Position numbers and translations under genes: made by a program. Shown here in pieces: positions 48 through 3,965 of a stretch of 35,667 bases of DNA. A model generated the notes under the pieces. That model worked only from the letters and a program-made list of their open reading frames with translations, had not been told where the DNA came from and ran no database searches. Source of the stretch: an uncultured Lachnospiraceae bacterium (GTDB lineage: Bacteria > Bacillota > Clostridia > Lachnospirales > Lachnospiraceae); contig CAMKEX010000011.1 in NCBI GenBank assembly GCA_946411695.1, positions 1 to 35,667 on the forward strand, given 5' to 3'. How positions within the stretch are numbered: the stretch's first letter is position 1; each line of letters begins with the position of its first letter.

Positions 48-55
48 CGGCTCTG
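48..55. repeat. Left target site duplication of the IS256 element
   Basis: CGGCTCTG here is repeated exactly at 2114-2121. The identity stops at both sides of the 8 bases, as expected for a target duplication. IS256-family elements are known to make 8-9 bp duplications. This fixes the left boundary of the element at base 56. Confidence 0.85.
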
Positions 56-80
56 GGATGTGTGAAAGTTTTTCTGTAAA
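56..80. repeat. Left terminal inverted repeat of the IS256 element
   Basis: This 25-base end matches the reverse complement of 2089-2113 at most positions, including TGTGAAA and TCTGTAAA. A further shared block, CCTTCTATGATA, follows inside both ends at different distances (about 83-94 on the left, 2061-2072 on the right). Confidence 0.8.
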
Positions 81-105
81 TTGCCTTCTATGATATGAAT
101 TACGT

Positions 106-145
106 GAGCCGACGAGCGGAAACATGCCTGGCGGCTCTTTTATTA
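106..145 (+). terminator. Terminator-like hairpin, plus strand
   Basis: GAGCCG at 106-111 pairs with CGGCTC at 132-137, with weaker pairs inside, and is followed by TTTTATTAT. The T-rich tail lies only on the plus-strand side, so it would stop transcription entering the IS from the left and insulate the RNA-like region further in. The stem is short, so strength is uncertain. Confidence 0.5.
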
Positions 146-175
146 TCTAATAGCAAACCTGCTAAAAGATGTCAA

Positions 176-181
176 TATAAT
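176..181 (+). promoter_or_regulatory. Possible -10 box ahead of the structured region
   Basis: A perfect TATAAT lies about 25 bases before the first strong hairpin (206-229) and after the terminator-like hairpin. No convincing -35 box is visible at 16-18 bases upstream. It is offered only because its position and strand fit the proposed plus-strand RNA. Confidence 0.3.
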
Positions 182-205
182 TGCGTCTTTCCCCGGATAT
201 ATAAA

Positions 206-731
206 AACCTGTTTCTGGACTGACAGGTTGCAATGAATCCGTACAGTGCGGAAAAGCAGGCTCTTTTTGGAGGAGGTATCGGGCCGGGCCATACAAGTGG
301 AGCGGCCTTCCTGCGTATAATCAGCGTGCGATAACGGGCTGGCATTTCCTTTCTGCAGGCTCCCCCCGTTATCGGCACGATCCCGGGACGCAGGAAGGGA
401 AGGCTGTCAGGGGGACCGTGGAATAAATCGCAGTCCGTGCGCTGAAAGCGTGCGGATACGAGAATTTATGCCGCGAAAGCCCCTTGACAGCCGCACAGCG
501 GAACGTACCTTATCCGGCTGAACATCTGGCTTACGGAAACCCTGGCTGCCGGCAGGTCTCGCTTCGCTCAGCTGATTCCGAACATGGGCGGCCTTCTCTA
601 AAAAAGGCCGTCCCCGGTTCGGATCAGCTGAGCGAAGCGATGCCGGCTTCATGTTTTCACTTGAAGCACTGCATATGGAGGGGCACTGACAGCTTGCATC
701 ATAAAATATGGAGAAGCTGTATCCTTCCCCT
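206..731 (+). ncRNA. Candidate large structured RNA carried in the IS256 element
   Basis: Seen: consecutive hairpins fill this stretch. They are 206/229 (7 bp), 238/252, 306/398 (11 bp, an 8x8 internal loop, then 14 bp with one bulge), 402/492 (13 bp, 4 bp and 6 bp segments, then about 10 bp capped by a GAA-type loop), 549/646 (6+18+6 bp plus an inner 7-bp stem), 646/667 and 679/731. Five G-U pairs (242-248, 410-484, 419-473, 438-452, 439-451) work only in plus-strand RNA; on the minus strand they would be A-C mismatches, and none favours the minus strand. No credible protein is encoded. Inference: a structured RNA of about 500-600 nt, transcribed towards the transposase gene. I do not recognise a known class. 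The exact ends are unknown and no clear 3' terminator is visible. An alternative is a structured 3' untranslated region of the transposase mRNA. Confidence 0.6.
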
Positions 732-778
732 GAAGATGGTCGCCCCGGCCCTGCAGCTGACATACAGAGAAGACGGAT

Positions 779-2035
779 CTATTCCGGCATCCGCCCTTCA
801 TACATGATCGCCATCTCCCCGTAGACCTTCCCCCAGTTGCGGATCGGCATTGTCCACTTTTTTGTCGCTTCGAACGTTGCAAGGTACAGGGCTTTGAGGA
901 GCGCCTGGTCGCTGGGGAAGACACTCCTCTGGCTGTTCAGCCTGCGATATGTGGCATTCAGGCTTTCCAGCGCGTTCGTGGTATATATAAGGACTCTGAC
1001 ATCTGATGAAAACTTGAAGATCGGTGTGATCGCGTCCCAGTTATTACGCCAGGATTTCATCGCGCGGGGGTATTTCTCTGACCACTTTTCCTCGACCCTG
1101 TCCCGGATCTCCGCAGCACGGTCCGCATCCGGCGCATTATAGATCTTTTTCAGGTCTGCCGCGAATGCCTTCCGGTCCTTGTCTGCCACATATTTCAGTG
1201 TGCTGCGTACCTGATGGACAAGGCATCTCTGGTATTCGGTTTTAGGAAAAGCTGTACCGATCGCTTCCTTGATGCCTGTCAGTCCGTCTGCGCAGATGAT
1301 CATGACATCCTTTACTCCGCGGTTTTTCAGCGTGTTCAGCACGGACAGCCAGAACTTTGAGCTCTCATTCTGGCCCACTTCGATGGTGAGGACCTCTTTG
1401 CGGCCTTCGAGACTGATCCCCAGGATGACATAGGCGGCAAGCTTGCGGATGAGCCCGTTATCACGCACCGAATAATGGATGGCATCGATGTACAGTATAG
1501 GATATATCTCGTCCAGGGGCCGGTTCTGCCATTCCTCGATCTGCGGGAGGATCTTGTCTGTGACATCAGAAATGAAGCCTTCCGAGGCTTCAAAACCATA
1601 GATGTCCATCAGCGTATCCGAGATCTGCCGGGTCGTCATTCCCTTGGCATACATGGAGATGATCTTCTGGTCGATATCAGAGATATCTTTCTGGCGCTTT
1701 TTTACAACCTTTGGCTCGAACGTGGAATTCCTGTCCTGAGGCACGTCGATCGTCATGCTCCCGAAACTGGTATTGACCTGTTTCTTTTTGGTCCCGTTGC
1801 GATAATCGGTCTGTTCAGAGCGGTCGATCCTTTCGGATTTTTCGTATCCGAGGTGATCATCCATCTCTGCTTCCATCATCTCTTTGATGGTTCCCCCGAG
1901 AAGGTCCTTGAGAGCATCCTGGATGTCCTGCGCTGATTCAATATCGTATTCCTGAAACAGCTGCTGGATGATAGCTCTCTTCCCATCTGTCATCTGTACA
2001 TGGTGAACGGGTTGTTTTTCTTTTCTTCTTGCCAT
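779..2035 (-). CDS. IS256-family transposase (DDE, MULE type)
   Basis: Seen: a 418-residue protein, full length for the family. The catalytic acids are the Asp of YIDAIHY (about 183), the Asp of ICADGL (about 249) and the Glu of NALESLN (about 356). The N-terminal region carries the family pattern LLGGTIKEMMEAEMDDHLGY. The start is preceded by AGGAGG eight bases upstream. Known: these enzymes move the element by a copy-out-paste-in route through a circular intermediate, acting at the terminal repeats. The gene is intact and lies between the IS ends, so it is probably active. Nothing else in the element encodes a protein. Confidence 0.95.
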   Translation of the reverse strand: MARRKEKQPVHHVQMTDGKRAIIQQLFQEYDIESAQDIQDALKDLLGGTIKEMMEAEMDDHLGYEKSERIDRSEQTDYRNGTKKKQVNTSFGSMTIDVPQDRNSTFEPKVVKKRQKDISDIDQKIISMYAKGMTTRQISDTLMDIYGFEASEGFISDVTDKILPQIEEWQNRPLDEIYPILYIDAIHYSVRDNGLIRKLAAYVILGISLEGRKEVLTIEVGQNESSKFWLSVLNTLKNRGVKDVMIICADGLTGIKEAIGTAFPKTEYQRCLVHQVRSTLKYVADKDRKAFAADLKKIYNAPDADRAAEIRDRVEEKWSEKYPRAMKSWRNNWDAITPIFKFSSDVRVLIYTTNALESLNATYRRLNSQRSVFPSDQALLKALYLATFEATKKWTMPIRNWGKVYGEMAIMYEGRMPE

Positions 2036-2088
2036 AATAAAGACCTCCTATGATCTACTGTATCATAGAAGGCCTTTAGATTTTTACT

Positions 2089-2113
2089 TTTACAGACTTT
2101 TTTTCACAGACTC
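2089..2113. repeat. Right terminal inverted repeat of the IS256 element
   Basis: Read on the minus strand it begins GAGTCTGTGAAA and contains GTCTGTAAA, aligned without gaps to bases 56-80. It lies just upstream of the transposase start. Confidence 0.8.
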
Positions 2114-2121
2114 CGGCTCTG
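2114..2121. repeat. Right target site duplication of the IS256 element
   Basis: CGGCTCTG, identical to 48-55, directly outside the right terminal repeat. Confidence 0.85.
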
Positions 2122-2194: not shown

Positions 2195-2214
2195 GGTTCT
2201 TCCGCACTTATTAG
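2195..2214. repeat. Left terminal inverted repeat of the ISL3 element
   Basis: Perfect 20-bp inverted match to 3966-3985. Confidence 0.9.
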
Positions 2215-3894
2215 TTTTTTCTCTTTGTGTCGTACATGAGTTTGGCCTCTAACAGAAGCTTTCCACAACGACCATACATTGATTTTTTAACCGTTTTAAC
2301 CCTGCTGTTTTGCCCCTCGACAAATGCATTGCTTAGGGGGCTTGCAACCGCATTTTCGACCGCCCCTATGTCTTTTAAGAGTCCATTAGAAAATGAGCTT
2401 ATTTCTTTCAAGCCTGACTTATTATGACGCTCAATGAAGAGGTATAGTCGAGGAATACTCTTTTTATCGAAGATTTCTCGAAACTCACGTATACAAAGGT
2501 CGAGCTCTGGAAGGCTGCCATGCTGATTCCAAAGGCATTCTCGATGCGACGGAGTTAATTCAATTTTCATCCACAAATGATTGAATATGCCTTTGCGTGT
2601 AATATAGTCTGTCTTGGGAGTAGCATTTCCTTCTGAATCATACTTTGGAGAAGTCCTGCAATATTTCGAGATATCGAGACAGTTTTCATTTGCAATATCT
2701 GTTATAAAATGACGCAAGTCAGATAAAGTACACTGGCATCCGCCATCCTTTAATTGTTTTGCTATTGATGTTGCTGTCTGCCCTTCCTTGATACTATTGA
2801 TGATGAAATTCGTGTGAATGTCCAGAGAGCTGTGCTTCCTGCTCCTGCAAAGCAGATCAGGGTCTCCTTCGAGATACTTTTTGACTGTTTTTCGTTCCTT
2901 TCCGGTAATCCGTGATATTTCCCGGATGGACTCTCCGGTTTTGAAAAGGTTTTGAATTGTAATGATCAACTCTCTTCGCCGGTTCTCGGGTTCAGTAAGG
3001 CTCGTTGCCAAATTAGGATTTTTCTCCGAAGATGCTCTTTTTTTCGCCGTCTTCTGTGGACGGCACAGATACTGCCGGTGTGGTTTTTTCAGGAGCCTCT
3101 TCATTTTCTAACGGAACAGGATTGATGGCAGGGATTGTACGCCCAAGAACTTTATTTACAGCATCCATTAGATTTTGATGCAAATGAAATCGGTCTGCGA
3201 TCTGCATACAATCCGGAAGGACTTCCTCAATCGTTTTTGCGTAAGCGGAAGCTCTGTCACGAGTAACTGTCGTCACATGTTTGTTGTTCTGAAGCCATTC
3301 TTTTAATGATTTACCGTCGCGTCCGTTTAATACAGCGACCGGTTTATGAGTGGCTTCATCAACCACTATGGTTCCATATGTATGCCGCTTTTTGAACGCA
3401 AAATCATCAACACCTATTGCTGATCCGCATATTGGAGGTGGCTGTTGCTTATACTTCTTTATAAGCAGACGAATCACCGTATCACCGCTGATTTTAACAT
3501 TTACAGAGTTCAGAATACGGGCACTTGCTTCGCAGCTTGTCTCAGTTGCCAAAAGGCAGGCAAAATCTTCCAGCCGTTCTGTCATCTGGCTTCTATAACT
3601 CAGGAAGCCGTCGAAAGTTTCAGTTGACGCAAAAGAACCGCAGGCTGTACTGGTACATTGATAATCGTAAATCTGTGCGACAAGTGTAACCCGTTTTCCC
3701 AGAATCGGAAGATCCTGTACTTTACGCCGGTGAGTCCCGTGGTGCCTGACCAATGGAGCACCACATTTATGGCAGGTACTTTCCCGGCTTGTGGAATGCA
3801 TATGAATCACTATTTCATTGTCTGTTTCATCCACCCGTGTAATACTCAATTCGGGAGGATAAAAAGACTGTAAATTAAGATCTGCTGTAGACAT
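2211..3894 (-). pseudogene. ISL3-family transposase, frame broken at an A7 run
   Basis: Seen: the first part (start ATG at 3894, GAGGG upstream) has the N-terminal zinc finger with CHKCG and a later Cys pair, and the first two catalytic Asp residues (GVDDFAF and RDRASAY). It ends at a stop near 3013. The second part continues in another frame to 2211. It has a helix-turn-helix stretch and the last catalytic Glu (VEGQNSR). The frames cross at about 3037-3043, where the minus strand reads GCG followed by seven A. Removing one A joins them into one protein of about 560 residues, the normal ISL3 size. Inference: either a one-base insertion killed the gene, or slippage on the A run makes a little full-length enzyme. 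A standard -1 frameshift does not lead into the second frame. Confidence 0.85.
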
Positions 3895-3965
3895 ATCATG
3901 ACCCTCATAGGTTTTCAACTATATGTCTCATTATACATCAGATTGATTGGTAATTCTACGCAATA

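What the first reader, a model, noticed from the sequence alone, without database searches (positions are those of the whole stretch)
56..2113. An IS256-family element that carries a structured RNA instead of being transposase-only
The element is bounded to the base by a perfect 8-bp target duplication and aligned 25-bp ends, yet about 720 of its 2058 bp are non-coding and densely folded. IS256 elements normally contain little besides the transposase. Because the whole unit lies within one duplication, the RNA-like part most likely moved with the IS. IS110 and IS200/IS605 elements are known to carry functional RNAs, but I know of no such case for IS256.
Basis: partly seen in the sequence, partly recalled or inferred. 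Interest (0 to 1): 0.85.

Follow-up and report, generated by a model that had tools for sequence, protein, structure and literature searches.

The report
Insertion sequences carrying a plasmid hairpin
A small bacterial jumping gene carries, beside its transposase gene, a folded hairpin that is also carried by several unrelated families of jumping genes, by conjugative plasmids including the classic F plasmid, and by phages, and which probably works as single-stranded DNA rather than as RNA.

Summary
Window 56-2113 is an IS256-family element with a perfect 8-bp target duplication and 723 strongly folding bases downstream of its transposase. The block is acquired: none of 80 fetched IS256 relatives (65 with their 3' end visible) contains its core.

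The core (402-492, + strand) is a hairpin family with strong covariation and no Rfam match. It recurs downstream of transposase genes of unrelated insertion sequences (IS6-like, IS3, IS30, ISNCY, and a distant IS256 element of Geobacillus). It also occurs on 1,749 of 72,556 plasmid records, mostly conjugative, and on phage contigs. In the F plasmid leading region it scores 60 bits (E 7e-14), opposite to the leading genes, which I infer is the transferred strand. Four more sites in three plasmids agree; one plasmid is mixed.

So 'IS256 with its own RNA' is only partly right: several IS families share a folded module with conjugative plasmids and phages. I think it most likely acts as single-stranded DNA, as a site that starts second-strand synthesis; that function is inferred. 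An RNA role is not excluded. Ten literature searches listed no paper that I recognised as describing it; most were not opened.

The parts
48..55 (.). target-site duplication, left copy (CGGCTCTG)
   Evidence: identical to 2114-2121
2114..2121 (.). target-site duplication, right copy
56..105 (+). left end of the IS256 element (transposase 3' side)
   Evidence: a similar end is found in relatives (query 5-43)
2056..2113 (-). right end of the IS256 element (transposase 5' side)
779..2035 (-). IS256-family transposase, 418 aa
   Evidence: PF00872; NF033543, 411 bits, cut-off 150
56..778 (+). strongly folded part of the element without a recognised gene
231..710 (+). stretch 86% identical to a block inside an IS3 element of another species of the genus (G011)
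306..399 (+). upstream hairpin ('A'), shared in part with copies in G020 and G027
   Evidence: limits by eye
402..492 (+). core hairpin ('B'): the family found in IS elements, plasmids and phages
   Evidence: models R1 and R2; covariation; 90.9 bits with R1
493..505 (+). GCACAGCGGAACG, conserved tail of the type II form
   Evidence: alignment
548..647 (.). about 100-bp inverted repeat (large palindrome), shared with G011
   Evidence: 81% self-complementary

Best explanation
The element is an ordinary IS256-family insertion sequence that has acquired a folded module next to its transposase gene. The module's core hairpin belongs to a widespread family carried by mobile elements. I think it acts as folded single-stranded DNA: a single-strand initiation (ssi)-like site that a host factor recognises to start the complementary strand. 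On conjugative plasmids this would act on the entering strand. In insertion sequences that move through replication (copy-out/paste-in or cointegrate) it could help to copy the intermediate, or help an element that finds itself on single-stranded DNA. Shown: the IS limits, the acquired nature of the block, the conserved structure with covariation, the placement downstream of transposase genes in several IS families, and the strand relation in the few leading regions examined. Inferred: that the active form is DNA, that it primes synthesis, which strand is transferred, and any benefit to the IS.
For: Covariation: 25 of 31 pairs with compensatory changes and 92.4% of cells paired over 82 matches (78 distinct) from IS, plasmid and phage sources; 0 of 500 shuffles reach this (the alignment is fitted to the model). 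Plasmids: with the core as query (E up to 0.01), 1,749 of 72,556 PLSDB records, of which 1,359 are typed conjugative and 274 mobilizable (background shares in PLSDB not measured). F plasmid: NC_002483 54000-54069 on the strand opposite to the leading genes, 60.4 bits. The same strand relation holds at two sites of pBCJ2315 and in an Aeromonas and an E. coli plasmid. Two small mobilizable plasmids carry it about 300-375 nt upstream of mobV or mobC. Viral contigs: more coding sequence on the hairpin strand in 32 of 37, several of them near-identical; one has a rolling-circle initiator as neighbour. Replicative transposition is documented for IS256 (PMC7780238, passages), IS6 (PMC7986276, passages) and IS30 (PMC9333248, abstract in the listing); for IS3 it is recalled, for ISNCY not checked. 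Frpo/ssi are known folded single-strand promoters and priming sites of leading regions (passages of PMC11541004, PMC7736820, PMC9849209).
Against: No match above background (best 16.5 bits) in phiX174, G4, M13, ColE1, pAMbeta1 or R100 80-94 kb, so it belongs to no characterised ssi class tested here. The F site is not one of the two published Frpo sites, which lie upstream of ygeA and ssb. A further conjugative plasmid, pSN0726-36, is mixed: the nearest genes on one side share the hairpin strand and those on the other side do not; a Burkholderia and an Arsenophonus record were not informative. Some carriers are tailed, presumably double-stranded, phages (terminase, portal). In many IS loci the hairpin closely follows the transposase stop, as a 3'-UTR RNA also would. 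In the window it lies opposite to the transposase, whereas 38 of 41 loci with an assigned transposase have it on the same strand (the other two exceptions, L176 and L213, are weak matches). IS6-like elements without the hairpin carry another folded block in the same slot that was not found on plasmids or phages. The invariant G.T (G.U) pair fits RNA as well as DNA.
Confidence: 0.5

Rival explanations
1. The module is a structured RNA: a 3'-UTR or separate non-coding RNA of mobile elements that controls transposase expression, protects the mRNA or binds a protein.
For: In the 27 IS6-like loci the hairpin lies within about 24 nt of the transposase stop on the coding strand; in four of them the ORF runs 12 nt into it. 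The longer type I form (helix P0, B, C, D) is conserved in a MAFFT alignment of 24 sequences that was not fitted to a model, with the structure predicted from that alignment: 98.3% of cells paired and 14 of 49 pairs compensatory; the best of 300 shuffles reached 93.2% and 13. An intrinsic-terminator-like hairpin follows before the right end (by eye).
Against: In the leading regions examined the hairpin lies antisense to the neighbouring genes. In the window it is antisense to the transposase and no good promoter was found on its strand (one weak match, 2.2 expected by chance on both strands of 2.3 kb). No Rfam family matches.
Confidence: 0.27
2. The hairpin is a palindromic hitchhiker (REP- or MITE-like) without benefit to its carriers, spread by recombination between mobile elements.
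For: It turns up in many kinds of mobile element. The G011 IS3 block lies beside a remnant resembling an IS256 end, which suggests exchange between elements. Long palindromes recombine easily (general knowledge).
Against: Conserved core and mismatch positions over 82 matches with compensating stems, a constant place after the stop codon in IS6-like elements, and 21 of 21 assessed IS6-like places filled with one of two folded blocks argue for selection.
Confidence: 0.13
3. It is a recognition site for a recombinase or relaxase acting on folded DNA (like attC or oriT hairpins), so that blocks are exchanged as cassettes.
For: Relatives of this IS carry different passengers in the same place, and the block is shared by an IS256 and an IS3 element.
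Against: I saw no junction with defined ends or a duplication for the block itself in the IS3 loci compared by eye, and noticed no recombinase gene common to the carriers; neither was searched systematically.
Confidence: 0.07
4. The block is ordinary chromosomal sequence trapped by the IS, or a chance fold.
For: 0 of 80 relatives have the core.
Against: Fold z-scores of -7.1 and -9.5, covariation and recurrence in other mobile elements.
Confidence: 0.03

Closest known systems
Frpo / ssi single-strand promoters and initiation sites of conjugative plasmids (Masai and Arai 1997, recalled and seen only as a reference; PMC11541004, PMC9849209 and PMC7736820, passages seen)
   Same: Hairpin of the leading region on the inferred transferred strand; found in the F plasmid leading region itself.
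   Different: Not at the two published Frpo sites of F; the model gave only one hit above background in the F stretch searched; -35/-10 layout not demonstrated; also inside IS elements and phages.
Primosome assembly sites and minus-strand origins (phiX174, G4, M13, ColE1, pAMbeta1)
   Same: Folded single-stranded DNA that starts complementary-strand synthesis is the proposed role.
   Different: No match above background in these records.
IS256 family of insertion sequences
   Same: Transposase, ends and target duplication.
   Different: Extra folded block whose core was not found in 80 relatives.
Transporter IS (tIS) with passenger genes (PMC7986276, passage)
   Same: Cargo between transposase and one end.
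   Different: The cargo here is a folded module without a recognised gene.
IS110 bridge RNA and IS200/IS605 guide RNA (recalled)
   Same: A structured non-coding part inside an IS.
   Different: No guide-like match to target sites was sought; other transposase class; core shared with plasmids and phages.
Mobile/repeat sequence candidate motif MRSC-65-2 (PMC11109978, passage)
   Same: Covarying stem, in some instances near transposases, possibly active as DNA.

Membership tests
IS256 family | IS256-type (Mutator-like) DDE transposase above the curated cut-off | tested here: met
   NF033543 411 bits, cut-off 150; PF00872
IS256 family | terminal inverted repeats and 8-9-bp target duplication | tested here: met
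single-strand initiation (ssi) / Frpo elements | lies on the transferred strand in leading regions | tested here: met
   5 of 5 sites in the 4 plasmids where I recognised leading-region genes are opposite to those genes; a fifth conjugative plasmid is mixed. The strand of transfer is inferred from the genes, not measured
single-strand initiation (ssi) / Frpo elements | sequence or structure match to a characterised ssi, PAS or minus-strand origin | tested here: not met
   phiX174, G4, M13, ColE1, pAMbeta1 and R100 80-94 kb at background; the F hit is at 54.0 kb, not at Frpo1 or Frpo2 as placed by PMC9849209. Other mapped ssi sites of F were not available for comparison
single-strand initiation (ssi) / Frpo elements | primes synthesis or transcription on single-stranded DNA | not testable with these tools
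   needs a bench assay
single-strand initiation (ssi) / Frpo elements | -35 and -10 boxes in the stem | tested here: inconclusive
   no convincing pair of boxes seen by eye in the conserved stem; no formal scan of the folded form
Rfam structured RNA families | match to any of 4,227 models | tested here: not met
   (whole window, gathering): none; (10 and 7 loci, permissive): only hits far below gathering scores, nearly all microRNA models on palindromes
IS110-type bridge RNA | loops complementary to donor and target | not tested
   no copy series with known targets for this element

The most novel reading that the evidence does not exclude
Several families of replicatively transposing insertion sequences carry, in a slot after the transposase gene, a single-stranded-DNA initiation site of the kind used by conjugative plasmids and phages, and use it to have their transposition or transfer intermediate copied.
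Probability: 0.3. Interest if true: 0.9.

Novelty: new variant of a known kind. Interest (0 to 1): 0.74.

Why it matters
If true, insertion sequences bring their own second-strand start site. That would make the replication step of copy-out transposition testable from a new side and would link IS biology with plasmid entry. Independently of function, the hairpin family is found in Bacillota and Pseudomonadota (with a short match in one actinobacterial plasmid), in the F plasmid leading region and on phages, and matches no Rfam family, so it deserves a name and an assay.

Tried and rejected
A conserved module proper to the IS256 lineage of the window: rejected, 0 of 80 relatives carry the core (15 of the 80 do not show their 3' end). 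Long 3' parts of other relatives as homologues of the block: rejected, they share with it only the terminal end of the element. Known RNA family: none. tRNA or tmRNA: none. Primosome assembly site or G4/M13-type origin by sequence: rejected. Type III block on plasmids or phages: no match; one IMG/VR contig holds an exact 22-base piece. Paper searches (two returned no paper) listed nothing that I recognised as describing such a module in IS elements; I looked at passages of eight papers (PMC8040213, PMC11109978, PMC11541004, PMC7736820, PMC9849209, PMC5703833, PMC7780238, PMC7986276), none read whole. Target duplications of the (Para)Geobacillus element: found in 1 of 5 copies.

Rows dropped before counts: L155 (partial match) and L154 (125-nt hairpin) were left out of A5, as were two opposite-strand palindrome echoes. 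A6 was made from 81 loci; it left out the training loci and L181-L184, L187, L188 and L221, and keeps one echo (L177 +). Genome searches with the models scored only 11-69 candidates per genome, so their counts are lower bounds; the order and phylum samples share genomes with the family sample. A5 and A6 are fitted to the model, so their pair counts lean towards it; one search uses an alignment that is not.

Full report
The element. CGGCTCTG flanks 56-2113. The transposase 779-2035 (- strand) is an IS256-family protein by Pfam and NCBIfam. The 723 bases downstream of it, up to the left end, fold strongly with RNA parameters (-314.7 kcal/mol, no shuffles run) and with DNA parameters (-164.7, z -9.5, 0 of 20 shuffles). 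The genome search found one such transposase and one such block.

Is the block part of this IS lineage? 80 relatives of the transposase were fetched from GTDB genomes (319 stretches encoded a relative; the best 80 were kept). Of these, 65 show a 3' end, and 59 of the 65 have 130-187 nt after the stop codon. The two closest, L051 (87%, part of the stretch unread) and L052 (84%), have 173 and 166. The exceptions are L125 (96), L064 (216), L056 (808), L053 (959), L059 (1,026) and L127 (1,209, doubtful). By eye L053, L056 and L059 hold passenger genes between a hairpin after the stop and a conserved end with an outward promoter. None of the 80 loci contains the core hairpin of the window. The block is therefore an acquisition, though one that lies inside this transposed copy.

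The core hairpin. Blast of the block in 99 genomes gave matches in 11, some of them only to the IS ends. Pieces of the core at 70-100% identity lie in other species of the genus, several next to transposases of other families. A covariance model of four sequences (R1) found 15 of 62 genomes of the genus. A second model of 17 sequences (R2) found 23 of 397 family genomes (E up to 0.01), 16 of 295 order genomes and 3 of 299 phylum genomes (E up to 0.001), each count including the window's own genome. The structure is P1 (about 13 pairs), an AC/AAAG internal loop, P2 CGTGG/CCGCG with a nearly invariant T.G pair, an A.G mismatch, P3 ATA/TAT of variable length, and a variable tip. Over A5 (17 sequences) 19 of 31 pairs, and over A6 (82 matches, 78 distinct) 25 of 31 pairs, show changes on both sides; no shuffle of 500 reaches the observed values. 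The T.G pair is kept in 76 of 78 distinct rows.

Where it lies in insertion sequences. Of 65 oriented cellular loci, 38 have a transposase on the same strand within about 450 nt upstream: 27 IS6-like, 5 IS3, 5 IS30, 1 ISNCY. Three have one on the opposite strand: the window (IS256), and the weak matches L176 and L213. In the other 24 I assigned none with the seven reference proteins used; in a few of these the contig begins just before the hairpin. The distance from the stop to the hairpin is -12 to about 24 nt in IS6-like loci, 15 in ISNCY, 31-271 in IS3 and 175-447 in IS30. The IS6-like protein is below the IS6 cut-off but by eye has the zinc ribbon and long N-terminus described for IS6 clade i (PMC7986276, passage). 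Five copies show 8-bp duplications by eye. Among the 30 loci, 21 distinct places show the end of the IS6-like gene: 12 have the hairpin and 9 have a different folded block, 'type III', recognised by eye; none has neither. In the genus, of 22 IS3 loci, 2 have the hairpin, 2 have another long block, 14 go straight from stop to terminator and inverted repeat, and 4 could not be judged (by eye). So the place after the transposase stop is a slot that may be empty or filled.

The longer form. In 24 of 27 IS loci tested the hairpin is followed within 170 nt by a [CA]GGCGAG motif (1.1 expected from shuffles), as in 6 of 23 other cellular loci (0.4 expected) and 10 of 41 viral and plasmid sites (2.6 expected, at varying distances). 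An alignment not fitted to a model supports an outer helix P0 and the B hairpin (98.3% of cells paired, 14 of 49 pairs compensatory).

An independent IS256 case. One viral contig (L305) and a Parageobacillus plasmid (L331) hold an IS256-family element whose transposase is 27-28% identical to the window's and which carries the hairpin within 12 nt of its stop, on the transposase strand. Three more Geobacillus and Parageobacillus plasmid records hold the same 1.55-kb element with the hairpin. One of the five copies (L336) has a perfect 9-bp duplication; the other four show none.

Beyond insertion sequences. With the core alone, 1,749 of 72,556 plasmid records match, 1,359 typed conjugative, 274 mobilizable and 116 non-mobilizable. 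37 IMG/VR contigs match exact patterns (27, 10). They include phages with a rolling-circle initiator, with terminase and with portal genes. In INPHARED one record of 50,697, an inovirus, matches the type I query, and only in the part after the hairpin. In the F plasmid the hairpin scores 60.4 bits at 54000-54069 on the strand opposite to the leading genes, overlapping the end of a small hypothetical gene. In pBCJ2315 two sites, in an Aeromonas plasmid one and in an E. coli plasmid one show the same relation. The conjugative plasmid pSN0726-36 is mixed. According to PMC11541004 (passages) leading-region genes are oriented for transcription from the entering strand, so the hairpin would be on that strand. 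Controls without a hit above background: phiX174, G4, M13, ColE1, pAMbeta1, lambda 1-2000 and R100 80-94 kb.

Interpretation. A hairpin that sits on the inferred transferred strand of plasmids, upstream of mobilisation genes of two small plasmids, on phages, and inside IS families that transpose through replication is best explained as a folded single-stranded-DNA site that starts complementary-strand synthesis. For IS256-type elements the figure-eight intermediate is converted to a circle by DNA replication (PMC7780238, passages), and IS6 cointegrates presumably form by replication (PMC7986276, passages), so such a site could serve the IS itself. This step is inference. The RNA reading remains open because of the position close after the stop codon and the good RNA fold. 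The window copy is unusual in lying antisense to the transposase.

Verdict.

Noticed in passing
L053, L056, L059 (also L065-L067, L070), 3' side of the transposase: Rumen-type relatives of this IS256 element carry, by eye, different passenger genes in one slot after a hairpin that follows the stop codon; in L053, L056 and L059 a conserved end with an outward promoter (TTGACx-N17-TATAxT) closes it.
   Followed up: partly
L230, L232, L235, L236, L240, L241, L244, L249, L256, just after the transposase stop: A second, unrelated folded block ('type III', about 200 nt, with a repeated TGTTCTT motif and a long stem) fills the same slot in IS6-like elements that lack the hairpin; no match on plasmids or phages.
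   Followed up: partly
window 2211-3918 (- strand): Two adjoining reading frames right of the element; the one at 3013-3918 matches the ISL3 transposase and the other may be the rest of the same gene out of frame.
   Followed up: no
L206 / G011:C157: An IS3 element with the window-like block also holds a remnant resembling the IS256 left end beside it, which hints at exchange between the two elements.
   Followed up: partly
L003 around 1501-1716: The hairpins lie between long inverted ends with repeated GCCCACTT-type units, like an IS21-type non-autonomous element (by eye).
   Followed up: no
window 548-647: A near-perfect palindrome of about 100 bp at the transposase side of the block, shared with G011.
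   Followed up: no
window 147-175 (- strand): TTGACA-17-TATTAG facing out of the left end, by eye; it may drive the transposase when the element is circular.
   Followed up: no
L163, L175, L188, L214, L223: The hairpin lies near genes that by eye look like plasmid mobilisation or replication genes (L163, L175, L188); in L214 and L223 its stem extends well beyond 20 bp.
   Followed up: no
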